Shown here: piece after piece, positions 2,279-8,480 of the stretch
Layout of the letters: each line of letters begins with the position of its first letter
Numbering within the stretch: position 1 is the first letter of the stretch
Assembly: GCA_022843805.1 (NCBI GenBank)
Contig: JALHMY010000062.1
Span: 1 to 55,107, forward strand
Direction: 5' to 3'
Source: Fuerstiella sp.
Lineage (GTDB): Bacteria; Planctomycetota; Planctomycetia; Planctomycetales; Planctomycetaceae
DNA length: 55,107 nt
The notes under the pieces: model-generated
Seen by the model: only the letters and a program-made list of their open reading frames with translations
The model's database searches: none
Told to the model about the DNA's origin: nothing
Translations under genes and position numbers: made by a program

Positions 2279-2944
2279 ATGCAGAGTACGGATCAAATCC
2301 TGTTACGAATCTTTAAGTTGCTGTCGTGCCTGCTGATCACGAAAGTCATCGTCGGAGTCGTTCTGAATTACCGCGATTACCTGCCACCGGATTTCGAATC
2401 CGATTTTCTGGTCGGAAGAGAATCTCACTTCTATGGAATTTATCAGTGGGCCTTTTACGCACATGTCTCGTCCGGCCCCTGTTCACTTCTTCTGGGAATG
2501 GTGCTCGTCAGCGACGGCTTCCGCAGACGGTTTTCAGGGTGGCATCGACGACTCGGGAAGTTACAGACGGTAAATGTTGTGCTGTTCGTAACTCCGTCCG
2601 GACTATGGATGTCCTTGTACGCGGACTCGGGAATTGCGGCTGGAGCAGGATTCGCTGTGCTGGGCATCGCCACGGCTTTCAGTGCCGTATTGGGCTGGCA
2701 ACTGGCCGTCCGACGGCAATTCAACTCGCACCGTCGATGGATGTGGCGCTGCTTCGTGCTGCTGTGCTCGGCTGTCGTTCTGCGACTGATCGGCGGCCTG
2801 ACGAGCGCAGCAGGAATTGAATCTGCCTGGGTCTATCCATTGTCGGCCTGGTTGTCCTGGCTGATGCCACTGCTGGCCTGTGAGCTGATCATCAGGAAAT
2901 CGGATGCTCGGTTGAAATCAGTTCGACCAGAGAATGCTCAATAG
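2279..2944 (+). CDS. DUF2306-type integral membrane protein
   Basis: A 221-aa membrane protein with about six hydrophobic segments (roughly residues 10-28, 55-78, 95-115, 120-140, 155-175 and 183-205). Charged loops include GRESHFYGIYQWAFYAHV, FSGWHRRLGKLQ and NSHRRWMWRCFVLL. The conserved histidines in H..LG and SHRRWM resemble DUF2306 proteins, whose biochemical role is not established. The ATG start follows a long intergenic region with no clear ribosome site. Its stop overlaps by 7 bp the stop of the convergent DUF1559 gene, so the two transcripts can be antisense at their 3' ends. Family assignment is from pattern only; the function is unknown. Confidence 0.75.
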   Translation: MQSTDQILLRIFKLLSCLLITKVIVGVVLNYRDYLPPDFESDFLVGRESHFYGIYQWAFYAHVSSGPCSLLLGMVLVSDGFRRRFSGWHRRLGKLQTVNVVLFVTPSGLWMSLYADSGIAAGAGFAVLGIATAFSAVLGWQLAVRRQFNSHRRWMWRCFVLLCSAVVLRLIGGLTSAAGIESAWVYPLSAWLSWLMPLLACELIIRKSDARLKSVRPENAQ

Positions 2945-3738
2945 GCGTTCACCGGCAGATTCTCATTTCCGTTGATAGAAATCAGAGCATTGAAAACATC
3001 TGCAGGCATTTCGTGGAGCAGGTACGTGGTATGGCCGTCAGCATAGGCTGCATTAAACCCGGATCTGTGTGCAGGCTTTTCCAATAGTCTGACTGAATTC
3101 AAAAGAGCCTCGTCCGCATCCACAGGCTGCATCCAGGGCACCGCCTCGCTGGAAGGAATTTCCATCACCAGCAGAGTTTGAGAATGTTCATCGGTGATCT
3201 CTGAAAACGGACGGGATTCCGTTCGATGAAAACATCCGTTTTCGGTGACAATGGCCATATAAGTCGAACAGTTTTTCGGACAATCTGCTCCAGGGCAGCG
3301 ATAGGTGCGGACCTCAGAATTGAATGCCTCTGAATTTGCCGGATCATTCCACGGCTTCGAGAGATCAATTTTCTGATACAGCGAGCCCTCATCCAGATGC
3401 GGAAGAATCAGAGTTCTCCAGCTGTGCAGAGGCTTGCCCTGTGCATCCACGGTGTAAGCGGGAGGAAGCCCGCCATTGCTTTCCGCGTAATTCATGAGTG
3501 CGACTGAAATGGATTTCAGATTATTCCGGCATTGCGTTCGATTCCTAACGTCACGCATGCCCGGCCCGCGGCGAATGCCTGGCAGAAAGACGCCCATCAG
3601 CAACAGCAGGATCCCGGAGATCAGAATGACTCGGAAAAACGAAAATCGTGAGCCGGTCTTCGCCACTTCGTTTTCGAGTGTCGGAGTTGTATAAGGATTG
3701 CCGGGGAACGAACGATCTTCGGCACGTTCTTTTGTCAT
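2938..3738 (-). CDS. DUF1559 pseudopilin-like protein
   Basis: Member of the large planctomycete DUF1559 family, thought to be exported or pilus-like proteins with unknown substrates. The 266-aa product has an N-terminal cytoplasmic stretch, one membrane helix (about 35-53, FRVILISGILLLLMGVFLPG), then the hallmark segment RNNLKSISVALMNYAESNGGLPPAY and SWRTLILPHLDEGSLYQ. Near the C-terminus is the HRSGFNAAYADG variant of the family's H-X9-DG motif. Unlike many paralogues it lacks the classical prepilin cleavage motif GFTLxE, so it may remain a plain membrane-anchored protein. The start codon overlaps the stop of the upstream permease gene (TGATG), indicating translational coupling as the last gene of a five-gene run. 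Confidence 0.88.
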   Translation of the reverse strand: MTKERAEDRSFPGNPYTTPTLENEVAKTGSRFSFFRVILISGILLLLMGVFLPGIRRGPGMRDVRNRTQCRNNLKSISVALMNYAESNGGLPPAYTVDAQGKPLHSWRTLILPHLDEGSLYQKIDLSKPWNDPANSEAFNSEVRTYRCPGADCPKNCSTYMAIVTENGCFHRTESRPFSEITDEHSQTLLVMEIPSSEAVPWMQPVDADEALLNSVRLLEKPAHRSGFNAAYADGHTTYLLHEMPADVFNALISINGNENLPVNAY

Positions 3739-5237
3739 CAGAATGTTCCCAGCATGGTGCCCAGTATCAGAACGGCGACGGTCGCGATGAATGGGCAGGC
3801 AATCGAAACGACCGCCACATCACGATAACTCTGTCGATGAGTGGAACCGCAGATAATCAGCAGTGTAATCAGAGCGCCGTTGTGTGGCAGGCTGTCCAGT
3901 CCACCGCATGACATCGACGCAATGCGATGCAATAGCTGAGGATCAATTCCTGCGTCAATGCCTCGCTGAAGAAACGTGCTGCCCAACGCTTCCAGGGCGA
4001 TACCAAGTCCGCCGGAGGCAGACCCGGTGATTCCCGCCATCGCATTGACCGCAATCATCTCTGAAACCAGGGGATTCCCCGGTGCGATATTGACCACCGC
4101 CTGCCTGACGGTTGCAAATGCGGCGAGTGCGGCGATCGTCGAACCGTAACCAAACTCAGAGGCCGTATTGAACACCGGAAGAAGAGAAGACTGTGCTCCG
4201 GTTGCCAGGGCTTTTTTCAGTCGCTCCCAGCATCGATAATGCAGCACAATCGTCAGCAGCAGGGCGCTCACCATCGCCAGAATTGTGGACCAGAGTCCCC
4301 GCACTCGTTCGATGTCAGTCGAACCAAACTTCGCCTCAGCGAGGTACTCCGTTTTCCAGCCGGGAAGCACGTACTGCGAAAAAACAAAATTCAGAACAAT
4401 CACACAGGCCAGGGGCGCGAATGCCGACCACGCTGACGGCAATGCGGCGGTATGATCTTCGGAAGCTGATTCAATCGACCCGGTTCCTGCATCCGTGACC
4501 TTTGCAGTCACTGATTGCGGAGAGGCTGAAGACGACACCGAACCTCCCGATGAAGCAGCAGATTCCAGTGCCTCCCTCCCGGCATTCGGCGCAGGCCCGT
4601 CAAATCCTTCGCCCCGCTGTCGGGCACGCGAGGCCTGAAGGTTCAGCCACAACATTCCGAGCAGAAACATGATTGCACCGCCGATGCAACCCAGACCCGG
4701 AGCGGCAAACGAAGTCGTGCCAAAGTACTTCATGGGGATCATGTTCTGAATCTGCACGGACCCCGGAAGTGACGTCATGGTAAACGTGAATGAACCGAGT
4801 GCAATGGCGGCCGGAATCAGACGCCGAGGCAGTCCGGCCTGCCGAAAGAGCGAACTGCAGAGCGGGAATACGGTGAACACAATAACAAAGAGTGACACAC
4901 CGCCGTATGTCAGGATGCCGCAGCTAATCACGATGGAAAGGATGGCCCTTTCCGGTCCGGCGACTCGTGAAATGAGACTGGCAAGTTTCATGACGCAGCC
5001 CGAGTCATCCATCAGCTTTCCAAAGACCGCACCCAGCAGAAACAGAGGAAAATAACTGACAACAAACTTCCCCACGGCGCCCATAAAAATCTGAGTATAG
5101 GCTGCCAGCAGCGGAGTATCTCCATCCAGCAGCACCGCCAGCAGAGCGCAGACGGGAGCCAGCAGGATGACACTCACGTCACGATAAGCGAGATACATCA
5201 GCAACAGTAATGAAAGCAGGATGCCGACAACGCCCAT
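3738..5237 (-). CDS. GntP-family-type permease
   Basis: Polytopic inner-membrane transporter of 499 aa resembling the GntP family (gluconate and related hydroxy-acid symporters). The N-terminus VVGILLSLLLLMYLAYRDVSVILLAPVCALLAVLLDG and the repeated glycine-rich helices are typical. Hallmark regions include VKFVVSYFPLFLLGAVFGKLMDDSG-like sequence, ITGSASGGLGIALEALG and SCGGLDSLPHNGALITLL. A hydrophilic Ser/Pro/Ala-rich loop (about residues 205-270) splits the two halves. The substrate cannot be read from sequence. The gene begins 19 nt after the small W-motif gene and overlaps the DUF1559 gene by 1 bp, so it sits centrally in the putative operon. Family call good, substrate unknown. Confidence 0.85.
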   Translation of the reverse strand: MGVVGILLSLLLLMYLAYRDVSVILLAPVCALLAVLLDGDTPLLAAYTQIFMGAVGKFVVSYFPLFLLGAVFGKLMDDSGCVMKLASLISRVAGPERAILSIVISCGILTYGGVSLFVIVFTVFPLCSSLFRQAGLPRRLIPAAIALGSFTFTMTSLPGSVQIQNMIPMKYFGTTSFAAPGLGCIGGAIMFLLGMLWLNLQASRARQRGEGFDGPAPNAGREALESAASSGGSVSSSASPQSVTAKVTDAGTGSIESASEDHTAALPSAWSAFAPLACVIVLNFVFSQYVLPGWKTEYLAEAKFGSTDIERVRGLWSTILAMVSALLLTIVLHYRCWERLKKALATGAQSSLLPVFNTASEFGYGSTIAALAAFATVRQAVVNIAPGNPLVSEMIAVNAMAGITGSASGGLGIALEALGSTFLQRGIDAGIDPQLLHRIASMSCGGLDSLPHNGALITLLIICGSTHRQSYRDVAVVSIACPFIATVAVLILGTMLGTF

Positions 5238-5256
5238 GATCCGGATAGCCCAGTCT

Positions 5257-5505
5257 TTAAAGAGAAAATCGATGTTCGCGAGGATGACTGCATTCGTGTT
5301 CCGCAGTTCGCATCACACTGGACAGTTTAGTCGCCGCATCCAGCAGACAGCGAATTTGTGCATGGATGGGGATCAGGAATTCTTCTTCAACCTTCTGACT
5401 TACCGGATCGTCCCACAACTCCTTGGTGGCCACCCAGCTGTGTTCAAGCTTCCTCATCGCATCCTCCAGCCTGGCAGCCGGGGTGAGAAAATCAGATCGT
5501 TTCAT
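5257..5505 (-). CDS. Small helical protein with W-x6-W-D motif (WXG-like)
   Basis: An 82-aa, largely helical protein. Residues about 12-66 form two predicted amphipathic helices around Trp24 and Trp31 (EHSWVATKELWDDPVSQKVEEEF), then IHAQIRCLLDAATKLSSVM. The size, the central tryptophans followed by an acidic residue and the helix-turn-helix pattern resemble WXG100-like helical-hairpin proteins, but the WxG tripeptide itself is absent. The ATG overlaps the stop of the upstream gene as ATGA, so it is translationally coupled to the 218-aa coiled-coil protein. No signal peptide or membrane segment. The function is unknown; a role as chaperone, adaptor or secreted partner of the neighbouring WXG-like protein is inference. 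Confidence 0.65.
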   Translation of the reverse strand: MKRSDFLTPAARLEDAMRKLEHSWVATKELWDDPVSQKVEEEFLIPIHAQIRCLLDAATKLSSVMRTAEHECSHPREHRFSL

Positions 5506-6158
5506 TCAGGAGTCTCCTGTTCAGAATGGATGTCCGGGCTGCCGGAAGAATCTTCCACGGAGACTGCGGCGCTGGTCTCTGTGTTCTGCGATGGCAAATT
5601 CTGCGATGCGAGTACATTGGCTTCAATCTGAGCTATCAGGCTTGTCAGTCTGGATGATGCAGAGACCGTGGCGGGTGTCGAGACAGTCGTATAAGCTTCG
5701 AGGCGATCGACGGCAAACCTGAGCAGTGCCAGCAGGCGAGGAATTTCCCGTTCCAGAATCATGATCATCTGGCTGGCCCGCCCGTGAAACTCGTTGGCTT
5801 CATGCTGAGCAGCAATGCTCCAGCGTTTCACCGTGGGGATTTGCTTTTGAGCAAACTCCAGATTGCGCTTAGCCTGTTCGACATCCTTTTGTTCTTCGAA
5901 ACAGGTCGGTCGAAAATCACCCACGCGTCGCATTCGACACTGATGCAGTCGGTTTCGCGCGTCCGTGACGTTACGGGTACAGGTTTCGATTTCGAGTTTC
6001 CAGAAGACGGGCCGATCCTGCTCCAGCCATCCCTGTACCTGACGAAGCTGCGAATCCATCGCGGTCAGAGAAAGCCTCGCTTCTTCCTGAAACTTTGCCA
6101 CAGCCATTGCAAACTGGCAGACGGCATCAATTGACGAGACGTTTGCCGAATCGGACAT
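5502..6158 (-). CDS. Coiled-coil protein of the WXG-like gene cluster
   Basis: A 218-aa soluble protein I do not recognise by name. Residues 1-160 are almost entirely helical and rich in E, Q, R and K, with long heptad-like stretches (FQEEARLSLTAMDSQLRQVQ; FEEQKDVEQAKRNLEFAQKQ; HGRASQMIMILEREIPRLL). The last 60 residues are Ser/Thr/Glu-rich and probably disordered. It has no signal peptide. It starts 22 nt after the WXG-like gene, and its stop overlaps the next start (ATGA). This arrangement of WXG-like gene, coiled-coil gene and second small helical gene suggests one complex. Long helical partners are known in type VII (Esx) secretion gene sets, but no secretion ATPase lies in this window. 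Confidence 0.65.
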   Translation of the reverse strand: MSDSANVSSIDAVCQFAMAVAKFQEEARLSLTAMDSQLRQVQGWLEQDRPVFWKLEIETCTRNVTDARNRLHQCRMRRVGDFRPTCFEEQKDVEQAKRNLEFAQKQIPTVKRWSIAAQHEANEFHGRASQMIMILEREIPRLLALLRFAVDRLEAYTTVSTPATVSASSRLTSLIAQIEANVLASQNLPSQNTETSAAVSVEDSSGSPDIHSEQETPE

Positions 6159-6180
6159 TGCGACACACTGTCTCCGGAAA

Positions 6181-6453
6181 TTATTGCTGCTGCAGATATT
6201 CTTCGATCAGCTGAGCTTTTCGCAGCAAATACGGGATAAACTGTTCGTTGGATTCCACAAATCGTCCAAGAGCCTTCATGTTACCGACAAACTCTTCAGA
6301 AAACCGCAATTGCTCCTGATCCCGCCATGTTTGAGCCAGATGATTCAGCTGTCCGGCAACCGCTCCGGTTTTCTCATTGAGTTCCTCGTTCAATCGACGA
6401 AGCATTTGAGCGAACCGTCGCAATTCGCCGGGATCAACAATGGCTTGTGTCAT
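6181..6453 (-). CDS. WXG100-like helical-hairpin protein
   Basis: A 90-aa protein with the size and layout of WXG100/ESAT-6-like proteins: helix 1 (about residues 7-38, DPGELRRFAQMLRRLNEELN), a turn containing Trp43 (AQTWRDQEQLRFSEEF), and helix 2 (about 48-88). The WxG signature is W-R-D here. Known WXG100 proteins form helical-hairpin dimers and are often substrates or partners of FtsK/EssC-type secretion. I use the ATG at 6453 because the reading upstream of it (ten residues from 6483) looks non-conserved and a GAG-rich stretch lies about 10-14 nt upstream; 6483 is an alternative start. It is the first gene of a tight minus-strand run, followed after 22 nt by the coiled-coil gene. Confidence 0.68.
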   Translation of the reverse strand: MTQAIVDPGELRRFAQMLRRLNEELNEKTGAVAGQLNHLAQTWRDQEQLRFSEEFVGNMKALGRFVESNEQFIPYLLRKAQLIEEYLQQQ

Positions 6454-6603
6454 AAATGTCGCTCGATTCTTCAGGTGCGCCACATTTCTTCAGGTGCGCC
6501 ACAGGTAATGCGGCTGCGACTTTCAATCATTGAACGATGTTGTGTTATAACGAATTTCGTTTGCACATCTCCGGCCAGATTTCGCTTCCGGAAAGATTTT
6601 AAG

Positions 6604-6840
6604 GCGAGTGCCAAAATCGTTTTTCTCGGGAGGGCGAGGCTCCCGCCGAGCATTTTTCGGGAGGGCGAGGCTCCCGCCGAGCATCTCCGGGAGGGCGAGG
6701 CTCCTGCCGAGCCGAGCATTTCTCGGCTCAGCAGGAGCTTCGCCCTCCCACTTGCATTTCTCGGCTCAGCAGGAGCTTCGCCCTCCCACTTGCATTTCTC
6801 GGCTCAGCAGGAGCTTCGCCCTCCCATTTGAATTTTCGGC
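6604..6840. repeat. Palindromic GC-rich tandem repeat cluster B
   Basis: Left edge GGCGAGTGCCAAAATCGTT, then three forward units (about 6628-6651, 6659-6682, 6689-6713). These are followed by three reverse units beginning at 6721, 6759 and 6797 (38-bp period; core GGAGCTTCGCCCTCCC). As in the other clusters there is a single orientation switch at the centre. The right edge abuts the stop codon of the PEP-CTERM gene. Spurious open frames run through it in several phases because the period lets short frames stay open; none is believable as a gene. Confidence 0.9.
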
Positions 6841-6845
6841 TCAGC

Positions 6846-7655
6846 CTAAGAACTAAACAGCGTGCGAATGACTGAAATCTTTGAACGGCACAATATACAC
6901 ATTGCGACCAGTCCACTGAACACCATAAACGACGGTTCAGGCACAGCCGCCAGACTGATTGCTCCCAGCGTAACATCAGCACCGGCACTGCTTGTGTTAT
7001 CACCAAGAAACAGAAAATTTGTCTGAGTATACGGGAAACCAAAGCTTGAGTAGTCGCGAAGTGCCCCGTTCAGAACCAGCGAATTATTGCCGTACAGCGA
7101 ATATGCATTTCCGAAAACAGACAGCCGCCAGTCCACTTCAGCAACTGTATTGTTGAACGCCGCCCCTTCTGCATGCGTAAACAGAGGAGAATCGGACTGA
7201 GCCCACACTTCCTGTTCCCAGAAACCCAGTTCAATTCCCCGTGCATCGCTGGTCAATACGATCGTACTGAATCCGGCGCGATTGGTATTCGAATGGTTTT
7301 CTGAGTTCACTTTCAGTTCGAAGTTCAGGGAAAATCCCTGTTGGCGATTGAGGACTGGAAATGCTGGATTCTTCAGTGTTCCCGTGATTCCCCGATTACT
7401 GTAGCCGGCAGAAACACCGATTGACGACGTAAGTCGTACGCCCGTCCCCGGCACGATGGTTTGCGATGCCACCCCATTTGCGGCAAACGCCAGCCATGGC
7501 TGTTCCGATGGACGCTGTGATGTGCTGTCGTCAAACAACAGAACATCGGCCCAACCGGCTGTCGACGCCATTGCATAGCAGGCAAGCAGCAGCATTCCCT
7601 GCCAAACGGTGACACTGAAGAATCGAATTCGTCGGATGCCTTCAGCCCAGCACAT
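6846..7655 (-). CDS. PEP-CTERM sorted choice-of-anchor (type Y-like) protein
   Basis: An exported 269-aa protein probably anchored through the exosortase/PEP-CTERM route. A signal peptide spans about residues 1-36 (hydrophobic stretch VTVWQGMLLLACYAMASTAGWA). The mature part is a beta-rich lectin-like domain with GFSLNFELKVNSENHSNTN, RAGFSTIVLTSDARGIELGF and NFLFLGDNTSSAGADVTLG, which matches the choice-of-anchor Y style of domain. The C-terminus has the VPEP motif, then a transmembrane helix (SFMVFSGLVAMCILC) and basic residues. The ligand is unknown. No exosortase gene is present in this window. Its stop codon touches repeat cluster B. Confidence 0.85.
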   Translation of the reverse strand: MCWAEGIRRIRFFSVTVWQGMLLLACYAMASTAGWADVLLFDDSTSQRPSEQPWLAFAANGVASQTIVPGTGVRLTSSIGVSAGYSNRGITGTLKNPAFPVLNRQQGFSLNFELKVNSENHSNTNRAGFSTIVLTSDARGIELGFWEQEVWAQSDSPLFTHAEGAAFNNTVAEVDWRLSVFGNAYSLYGNNSLVLNGALRDYSSFGFPYTQTNFLFLGDNTSSAGADVTLGAISLAAVPEPSFMVFSGLVAMCILCRSKISVIRTLFSS

Positions 7656-7936: not shown

Positions 7937-8051
7937 GTGCTCTGTCAAGATACAGAGTTCGGGTTGGAGGTAGTGGATCTTGCTAAAGATCCCCTGGCTG
8001 CAGGACCTTTAGCAAGGTCCACTACCCGAAATTCAAAGCTTGACAAAGCAC
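7937..8051 (+). repeat. 115-bp palindromic element (family 2, copy 1)
   Basis: Terminal inverted repeat GTGCTCTGTCAAG (7937-7949) against CTTGACAAAGCAC (8039-8051), one mismatch. Inside are two facing arms, GTAGTGGATCTTGCTAAAG and CTTTAGCAAGGTCCACTAC, separated by a short GC-rich spacer. Related copies are at 9893-10009 (same orientation), 25830-25944 and 26351-26465 (opposite orientation). There is no coding capacity, so it is most like a non-autonomous MITE or REP-type element. It is placed directly beside repeat cluster C. Confidence 0.85.
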
Positions 8052-8059
8052 GAGCGGCA

Positions 8060-8480
8060 AAATTGTTTTTACCGGGAGGGCAAGGCTCCTGCCGAGCCAT
8101 GCTTGTTACCGGGAGGGCGAGGCTCCTGCCGAGCCGTGCTTTCTCGGCTCAGCGGGAGCTTCGCCCTCCCATTTGCTTTCTCGGCTCAGCAGGAGCTTCG
8201 CCCTCCCCTTGGCTTTCTCGGCTCAGCGGCAGCTTCGCCCTCCCCTTTGCTTTCTCGGCTCAGCGGGAGCTTCGCGCTCCCATTTGCTTTTTTCGGCTCA
8301 GCGGGAGCTTCGCCCTCCCCTTTGCATTCTCGGCTCAGCAGGAGCTTCGCCCTCCCAATTGCATTCTCGGCTCAGCAGGAGCTTCGCCCTCCCAATTTCA
8401 TTCTCGGCTCAGCGGGAGCTTCGCCCTCCCAATCTGGCGCGCTGATTGGTTGTTCTTGACTGCCGGTCGCCTAAGGCGTG
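8060..8480. repeat. Palindromic GC-rich tandem repeat cluster C (largest)
   Basis: Left edge GAGCGGCAAAATTGTTTTTA, two forward units (about 8076-8099 and 8112-8135), then eight reverse units of about 37 bp from 8140 to 8435 with core GGAGCTTCGCCCTCCC. The units differ at scattered positions, for example GGCAGC at about 8226 and GCGCTCCC at about 8272. The right edge CTGATTGGTTGTTCTTGACTGCCGGTCGC matches the right edge of the minimal copy at 33100-33219. The expansion is only in the reverse arm. Confidence 0.9.

What the first reader, a model, noticed from the sequence alone, without database searches (positions are those of the whole stretch)
2938..6453. Compact five-gene operon linking two WXG-like proteins, a coiled-coil protein, a GntP-type permease and a DUF1559 protein
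Gaps are 22 nt, -4, 19 and -1 nt, all on the minus strand. The first gene has the size and Trp turn of WXG100 proteins (W-R-D), the third has W-x6-W-D, and the second is a long helical protein. No FtsK/EssC ATPase, known from type VII secretion, is in view, and a polytopic permease and an exported pseudopilin-like protein follow. This combination may be an uncharacterised surface or export system. The observed spacing and motifs are direct; the shared function is inference.
Basis: partly seen in the sequence, partly recalled or inferred. Interest (0 to 1): 0.68.

Follow-up and report, generated by a model that had tools for sequence, protein, structure and literature searches.

The report
Planctomycete type-VII-like export gene set
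Three of the five genes look like parts of an uncharacterised bacterial protein-export machine whose motor gene sits elsewhere in the same genome; the two genes behind them appear to be chance neighbours.

Summary
The five open frames and the stated gaps are real. The five-gene unit is not conserved; its first three genes are. A (WXG100-like, 90 aa), B (218 aa, long helical hairpin) and C (82 aa, WXG100-like hairpin) go with a fourth gene, T, a ~1,350-aa FtsK/SpoIIIE ATPase nearest to EccC/EssC. Of 101 sampled genomes of the family 68 carry all four, 25 none, 8 part, also where the genes are scattered. Of 294 sampled genomes of the phylum: A 40, B 38, T 41 (my cut), as nested sets. Order A-B-C-T on one strand holds in 60 of 61 loci. 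YukC/EssB was found in 0 of 9 genomes and YukD in 1 of 9. Best reading: a pared-down type-VII-like exporter with B as a toxin-free carrier; function is inferred. WXG plus a three-module FtsK ATPase in planctomycetes was noted in a 2012 table footnote; the titles listed by six capped paper searches showed nothing further. Permease D and DUF1559 protein E are not part of the set.

The parts
6181..6453 (-). A: WXG100-like protein, 90 aa, WRD in the turn
   Evidence: Pfam WXG100 E 7.9e-5 (below cut-off) for the window copy, 36 of 36 aligned relatives match at E<=0.01; profile finds HP0062 (2.1e-8), EsxB (2.7e-6) and EsxA (0.003) in PDB; all 36 aligned rows are 90 aa
5502..6158 (-). B: long helical-hairpin protein, 218 aa, with a variable C-terminal tail
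   Evidence: AF2 helices 10-76 and 87-158, pLDDT mostly 97-98, a short helix 167-185, rest low confidence; no Pfam family at E<=1, only generic coiled-coil matches in PDB; relatives in 69 of 101 family genomes and 38 of 294 phylum genomes
5257..5505 (-). C: small WXG100-like hairpin, 82 aa, W-x6-W-x-D
   Evidence: AF2 helices 7-28 and 34-73; VIA-align's top 8 entries are WXG100 (Z 7.9-8.8; five are one protein, EsxB; a designed bundle follows at 7.3); Foldseek: 19 of 42 hits are type-VII proteins, best E 3.1, none significant; W-x-D in 36 of 36
3738..5237 (-). D: GntP-like permease; adjacent, judged not part of the system
   Evidence: weak GntP match; found in 5 of 30 relatives including this genome; in three of the other four (G047, G100, G004) it lies away from A, B and C; the fourth (G387) was not compared
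2938..3738 (-). E: DUF1559 protein with one hydrophobic segment and H-x9-DG; adjacent, judged not part of the system
   Evidence: Pfam DUF1559 E 1.5e-27; H-x9-DG found; falls in a cluster of 9 similar proteins in 7 genomes

Best explanation
A, B and C, together with the unlinked ATPase T (G000:C75:37974-41954), are the four parts of a reduced type-VII-like export system of Planctomycetota. [quoted passage not shown] I infer that A and C, both short W-x-D hairpins, pack on the long hairpin of B to make a three-part export complex that T recognises and moves across the inner membrane. This is analogous to an LXG carrier escorted by its two small WXG100-like targeting factors, but with no toxin attached. 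Shown here: the four families, their co-inheritance and gene order, T's relation to EccC/EssC, and predicted folds of B and C. Inferred: the complex, export, and the role of B as carrier.
For: Co-inheritance: 68 of 101 sampled family genomes have A, B, C and T, 25 none, 8 part. In the phylum A 40, B 38, T 41 (my cut) of 294; B within A, A within T. It persists when the genes are apart: 8 of the 68 have all four apart, two of these (G048, G070) single-contig assemblies. Order: in 61 loci with two or more of the genes all are on one strand and 60 keep A-B-C-T order. All 20 loci fetched from other families (of 27 such genomes with B) hold A, B and C, 15 with T. T: sister copy EccCb 108 and EssC 101 bits against 26 for FtsK, below the models' cut-offs; own copy in PDB: 4nh0 120 bits (titled FtsK/SpoIIIE; T. 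curvata EccC by recall), EccC5 98, FtsK 33; one Walker A in each of 44; module D3 matches D2 at 4e-10. A. C. Plasmid relatives of T in four of five neighbourhoods read sit beside an A-like protein (74, 44, 29, 20 bits; best control 7.2). In Helicobacter the slot between A and T holds a WHH nuclease and a SMI1/KNR4 protein.
Against: No export or complex has been measured. YukC/EssB was found in 0 of 9 genomes and YukD in 1 of 9, not the window's, so these membrane and accessory partners of known type VII systems are missing or unrecognised. The YxxxD/E export motif is absent from the last 35 residues of A (0 of 36) and C (0 of 36) and present in 5 of 38 of B. B's relation to the plasmid toxin carriers is not significant by HMM (12.0 bits against 11.1 for the best reversed control). 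C's likeness to WXG100 rests on a common simple fold: no significant Foldseek E, Z under the level the tool calls trustworthy for helical models, and a Pfam match in only 3 of 36. D1 matches D2 only weakly (P 0.088). No further substrate was identified. In most 'scattered' genomes contig breaks could mimic separation.
Confidence: 0.72

Rival explanations
1. One reading: permease D and DUF1559 protein E work with A, B and C in one machine.
For: Tight spacing and one strand; possibly one transcript in this genome.
Against: D found no partner in the neighbourhood clusters. D has relatives in 4 other of 30 genomes; in the three where A-C are placed (G047, G100, G004) it lies on another contig or megabases away, and G387 was not compared. 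In sister genome G047 the stretch runs A-B-C-T, with no clustered D or E. DUF1559 proteins are many in planctomycetes (recalled).
Confidence: 0.05
2. T, A, B and C are not a secretion system but a DNA- or envelope-related machine: an FtsK-like motor with helical adaptors acting in the cytoplasm or at the membrane.
For: T is FtsK/SpoIIIE family; no YxxxD/E export motif on A or C; no YukC in 9 genomes and YukD in only 1 of 9.
Against: T is nearer EccC/EssC than FtsK; a WXG100 protein with such an ATPase is the shared core of type VII systems (PMC11217815 abstract); a plasmid relative carries a nuclease and an immunity-type protein in the same slot.
Confidence: 0.15
3. It is a mobile interbacterial toxin exporter, as the 2012 footnote suggests for this class, with B as a degenerate or unrecognised effector.
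For: Zhang et al. 2012 call the class mobile; one plasmid relative has a clear nuclease plus immunity-type pair, others have large uncharacterised proteins in that place.
Against: In nearly every family genome with a match there is one copy of A and of B, in single-contig assemblies on the main contig. The T tree keeps the 44 family rows on one side (support 97) and the 15 rows of other families on another (94). B of the window has no toxin domain in Pfam, and its tail is variable.
Confidence: 0.08

Closest known systems
Planctomycete 'solo WXG plus three-module YueA-like ATPase' class (Zhang et al. 2012, PMC3482391, table footnote 6; passages read)
   Same: WXG protein with an EccC/EssC-like ATPase with three FtsK modules, only the middle active, in planctomycetes: A and T fit this.
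   Different: The passages I read name neither B nor C, give no co-inheritance or gene order, and call the class mobile; here the T tree fits descent within the phylum.
Helicobacter pylori HP0062 with a clustered FtsK/SpoIIIE protein (PMC3397514; passages read)
   Same: Best PDB relative of A (2.1e-8); also W-R-D in the turn; also in a gene cluster with an FtsK/SpoIIIE protein.
   Different: Different phylum; whether it has B and C partners was not examined.
T7SSb LXG toxin with its targeting factors Lap1 and Lap2 (PMC9600955; abstract and section list read)
   Same: A carrier with two small WXG100-like helpers forming a three-part pre-secretion complex; an analogy for B with A and C.
   Different: B matches no LXG model and has no toxin domain; one carrier per genome; YxxxD/E not found in A or C.
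T7SSc-T7SSj subtypes (PMC11217815; abstract, section list and passages read)
   Same: Variable systems that share the ATPase and a WXG100 protein.
   Different: By the abstract the subtypes are in Bacillota or Actinomycetota and most have a YukD-like protein, which was not found in the window's genome.

Membership tests
Type VII secretion system | EccC/EssC-type FtsK/SpoIIIE ATPase with N-terminal TM helices and several ATPase modules | tested here: met
   sister copy: EccCb 108 and EssC 101 bits against FtsK 26, below the models' own cut-offs; own copy: 4nh0 120 bits, EccC5 98 bits, FtsK 33; two hydrophobic segments and one Walker A; D3 resembles D2
Type VII secretion system | WXG100 protein encoded with the ATPase | tested here: met
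   A, B, C and T in one cluster in 32 of the 68 family genomes with all four; unlinked in the window's genome
Type VII secretion system | EssB/YukC membrane component (T7SSb) | tested here: not met
   PF10140: 0 of 9 genomes at E<=0.01; B. subtilis control rings
Type VII secretion system | YukD/EsaB ubiquitin-like component | tested here: not met
   PF08817: 1 of 9 genomes (G089, another contig than A-C), not the window's; B. subtilis control rings
Type VII secretion system | EccB, EccE, mycosin, EsaA | not tested
Type VII secretion system | ATPase-dependent export of the WXG100 protein | not testable with these tools
   needs a secretion assay
WXG100 family (protein A) | Match to the family profile | tested here: met
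   36 of 36 relatives at E<=0.01; window copy 23.3 bits, cut-off 27.3; 8 of 9 genomes searched have a match over the cut-off, the window's not
WXG100 family (protein A) | W-x-G in the turn | tested here: not met
   0 of 36 W-x-G, 36 of 36 W-x-D; HP0062, the best PDB relative, also has WRD
WXG100 family (protein A) | C-terminal HxxxD/ExxhxxxH pattern (pattern recalled; that one exists) | tested here: inconclusive
   loose pattern in 18 of 36; YxxxD/E in 0 of 36
WXG100 family (protein C) | Match to the family profile | tested here: inconclusive
   3 of 36 relatives match at E<=1, best 4.5e-4
WXG100 family (protein C) | Two-helix hairpin | tested here: met
   AF2 hairpin; top 8 VIA-align entries are WXG100, Z 7.9-8.8, rmsd 1.4-3.1, five of them one protein; next row, a designed bundle, is tied at 7.3; Foldseek E values not significant
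Zhang 2012 planctomycete WXG/three-FtsK class | Three FtsK modules with only the middle active | tested here: met
   one Walker A in each of 44, at the middle module; D3-D2 E 4e-10, D1-D3 1.3e-4, but D1-D2 only 0.088
Zhang 2012 planctomycete WXG/three-FtsK class | Mobile | tested here: inconclusive
   T tree keeps family and non-family rows on separate sides (97, 94), which points against recent mobility; no species tree was compared
LXG carrier (protein B) | LXG profile and C-terminal toxin | tested here: not met
   no Pfam family at E<=1 for the window copy; tail variable, mostly low confidence

The most novel reading that the evidence does not exclude
Planctomycetota carry a domesticated, toxin-free type-VII-like exporter. 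It has four genes, one copy per genome, and descends within the phylum. Its carrier B is the stripped-down counterpart of the toxin carriers that plasmid versions of the same machine use, and it exports the A-B-C complex for a housekeeping or cell-surface purpose in bacteria with two membranes. If so, it would be a minimal type VII machine without EssB, YukD or a mycobacterial-type accessory set, working in a diderm.
Probability: 0.35. Interest if true: 0.78.

Novelty: new variant of a known kind. Interest (0 to 1): 0.6.

Why it matters
Type VII secretion is described as a system of Bacillota and Actinomycetota (PMC11217815 abstract), and one survey of diderm secretion left it out as absent from diderm-LPS bacteria (PMC4793230, passage). 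A four-gene version in about two thirds of the sampled genomes of one planctomycete family, with two uncharacterised small partners and no recognised YukC component, would help define the minimal working set and gives a short list of genes to delete in cultivable strains. Because the genes can be scattered, inspection of a single locus misses the system, as happened here.

Tried and rejected
Five-gene unit with D and E: rejected on gene order. A fifth conserved partner: the next neighbour clusters after T, B, A and C were in at most 13 genomes; judging by eye from one sequence each for ten of them they look like large general families, and I judged none specific. B as a known fold: Foldseek and VIA-align gave only generic coiled coils; absence from such a list excludes nothing. 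B as a homologue of the plasmid toxin carriers: 12.0 bits for the best carrier against 11.1 for a reversed control; hhalign P 0.0002, 0.012, 0.048 and 0.64 on four single sequences. A shared Cys-pair motif was found in 27 of 38 B, 3 of 5 carriers and 43 of 493 control genes, but it was chosen after seeing the sequences. So B-as-carrier stays an inference. A-C by profile: P 6.6e-4, probability 27%; B-A: P 0.0016, probability 16%. Viral contigs: three scans with three T queries found no relative. One phage-collection search with the Caballeronia T gave 4 records, not followed up. Promoter and terminator scan: 1 and 6 sites against 1.8 and 4.2 in shuffles.

Limits: my gene calling was plain ORF calling. 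The family sample (101) and phylum sample (294) were drawn by the tool from larger groups. C was not searched phylum-wide. The 68 uses C at E<=0.1, A and B at 0.01, T at 1e-20; of the 8 partial genomes, two (G074, G095) rest on a marginal C hit alone and the other six are at most 90% complete. 'Apart' means not on one contig within 8 kb, so contig breaks count as apart; only the single-contig genomes are certain. Genomes are not independent; by genus the family figures are A 37, B 36, C 37 and T 37 of 58. Of the 114 genomes with a hit I counted 41 with E<=2.2e-16 as T and set the other 73 aside as ordinary FtsK because those I looked at match the catalytic module only; the cut is mine. TM calls are Kyte-Doolittle only. 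The T tree's plasmid rows have long branches.
Full report
What is in the window. Five minus-strand genes lie at 6181-6453 (A), 5502-6158 (B), 5257-5505 (C), 3738-5237 (D) and 2938-3738 (E), with gaps of 22, -4, 19 and -1. The earlier in-frame GTG of A at 6483 is not the likely start: all 36 aligned rows are 90 aa from the equivalent start.

Which genes belong together. Neighbourhoods of A, B and C relatives were fetched from the family (60 loci) and clustered. A, B and C formed three large clusters, and a fourth appeared unprompted: a protein of median 1,368 aa in 25 loci, lying after C. D formed no cluster. The new protein, T, has an FtsK/SpoIIIE domain (three copies scanned); the copy of sister genome G047 scores EccCb 108, EssC 101 and FtsK 26 bits, all below those models' cut-offs. 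The window's own genome has T on another contig, C75:37974-41954.

Co-inheritance. In 101 sampled genomes of the family: A in 71, B in 69, C in 73 at E<=0.1, two of them marginal, T in 72. All four are in 68, none in 25, part of the set in 8. Linkage among the 68: all together 32; ABC apart from T 8 (the window's state); AB|C|T 8; all four apart 8; A|BC|T 6; AB|CT 6. In fragmented assemblies contig breaks can mimic separation, but G048 and G070 are single contigs with all four genes far apart. Genes that are scattered yet still occur together point to a shared function rather than shared DNA. In 294 sampled genomes of the phylum: A 40, B 38, T 41 by my cut, where 114 genomes have some hit and the other 73 are weaker (E 4e-15 and up), which I take as ordinary FtsK. 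Every genome with B has A, and every genome with A has T; G202 and G351 have A and T without a detected B, and G309 has T alone. In 61 loci with at least two of the genes all are on one strand, and by domain position 60 keep the order A-B-C-T; the exception is L141 (B-C-A). All 20 loci fetched from other families, out of 27 such genomes with B, hold A, B and C; 15 of them also T. These 20 were chosen for having B.

What the proteins are. A: Pfam WXG100 matches all 36 members. Its profile finds HP0062 of H. pylori first, then EsxB and EsxA. HP0062 has WRD in its turn, like A, and lies in a gene cluster with an FtsK/SpoIIIE protein (PMC3397514, passages). A and C have W-x-D in 36 of 36 each and W-x-G in none. 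C: AlphaFold2 gives a short hairpin. Its eight best structural alignments are WXG100 proteins, but five of these are one protein, they come from Foldseek's own shortlist, and the next row is tied. Foldseek alone has 19 type VII proteins among 42 hits, none significant. Pfam WXG100 matches 3 of 36 C proteins, and profiles link A and C only weakly. B: AlphaFold2 gives two helices of 67 and 72 residues with a short turn, at high confidence, then a short helix 167-185 and a poorly predicted tail. I found no known family at E<=1 for the window copy and only generic coiled-coil folds. T: two hydrophobic segments at 224-242 and 266-284 in the own copy, and one Walker A motif in each of 44 copies. In PDB the own copy matches 4nh0 at 120 bits (titled FtsK/SpoIIIE; that it is T. 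curvata EccC is recalled), EccC5 at 98 and FtsK at 33. Module D3 is clearly related to D2 (4e-10); D1 only weakly (D1-D3 1.3e-4, D1-D2 0.088), with reversed controls at 0.24 and 0.71.

Relatives outside the phylum. T finds 9 plasmid records at E<=1e-15. I read five neighbourhoods. Four of the five have an A-like protein above all controls (74, 44, 29 and 20 bits; best control 7.2); the fifth, Rhodococcus pseudokoreensis, does not. In Helicobacter sp. NHP19-012 the order is 89-aa WXG protein, 340-aa protein with a WHH nuclease domain (1.1e-11), SMI1/KNR4 protein (1.6e-6), 77-aa protein, ATPase. So in a relative of this machine the place of B is taken by a toxin-like nuclease and its likely immunity protein. 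The corresponding large proteins of the other plasmids had no Pfam toxin domain. That B is a toxin-free form of such a carrier is an inference: the HMM score (12.0 against a best control of 11.1) does not show homology.

How it most likely works. Shown: four co-inherited proteins, one a T7SS-type ATPase with predicted TM segments, one a WXG100 relative, one a WXG100-like hairpin, one a long hairpin. Inferred: A and C pack on B, T recognises the complex and exports it. The model is taken from the LXG-Lap1-Lap2 pre-secretion complex (PMC9600955, abstract and section list). Known partners are missing: YukC/EssB in 0 of 9 genomes, YukD in 1 of 9 and not the window's. The export motif YxxxD/E is absent from the ends of A and C. 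EccB, EccE, mycosin and EsaA were not tested.

Against what is known. The class was noted in a table footnote of Zhang et al. 2012 (PMC3482391, passages): solo WXG domains with a distinct three-module ATPase in planctomycetes and other lineages, called mobile. T and A fit that note. B, C, the co-inheritance and the scattering are not in the passages I read. The T tree (44 family rows, 15 from other families, 5 plasmid) separates the family (97), the other families (94) and the plasmid rows (92), which fits descent within the phylum; I compared no species tree, and the plasmid branches are long. The 2024 survey of T7SS subtypes covers Bacillota and Actinomycetota (PMC11217815, abstract and passages). 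In six paper searches, of which four listed only part of their hits, I saw no title on a planctomycete type VII system. The library lacks most subscription papers, among them Sutcliffe's survey of WXG100 distribution, which I recall but could not read, so novelty is provisional.

Taxonomy. 78 of the 80 titles carry planctomycete names (including Fuerstiella, Schlesneria, Planctomicrobium, Phycisphaerales, Pirellulales and Isosphaeraceae); 2 say only bacterium.

Verdict. A real and well-supported finding, but a different one from that claimed: three genes, not five, belonging to a reduced type-VII-like system whose ATPase lies elsewhere in the genome. Function is inferred.

Noticed in passing
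window 6605-6845 and 8051-8468: Arrays of a G+C-rich repeat, spacing 30-38 nt, present in both orientations, on either side of the gene upstream of A; they give repetitive reading frames.
   Followed up: partly
window 6849-7655 (-): The gene upstream of A encodes a protein with a weak PEP-CTERM motif near its end (E 0.015, below cut-off).
   Followed up: no
L254 3761-8163 (Helicobacter sp. NHP19-012 plasmid): WXG protein, WHH nuclease, SMI1/KNR4 protein, 77-aa protein and ATPase in a row: a probable toxin exporter in Campylobacterota. [quoted passage not shown]
   Followed up: partly
L253 2573-13395 (Caballeronia sp. SBC2 plasmid): The same kind of ATPase and WXG pair sits among VWA, CARF (DUF1887), PP2C, kinase and AAA genes, a neighbourhood unlike the planctomycete one.
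   Followed up: no
G173 contigs C126 and C138: This genome has two long T matches on different contigs (E 1.6e-211 and 1.4e-204); the neighbours of neither were read.
   Followed up: no
G038, G076, G097, G317, G328 (genus g39): Five near-complete genomes of one genus in the same family show no A, B or T at the thresholds used: a candidate clean loss for comparing phenotypes.
   Followed up: no
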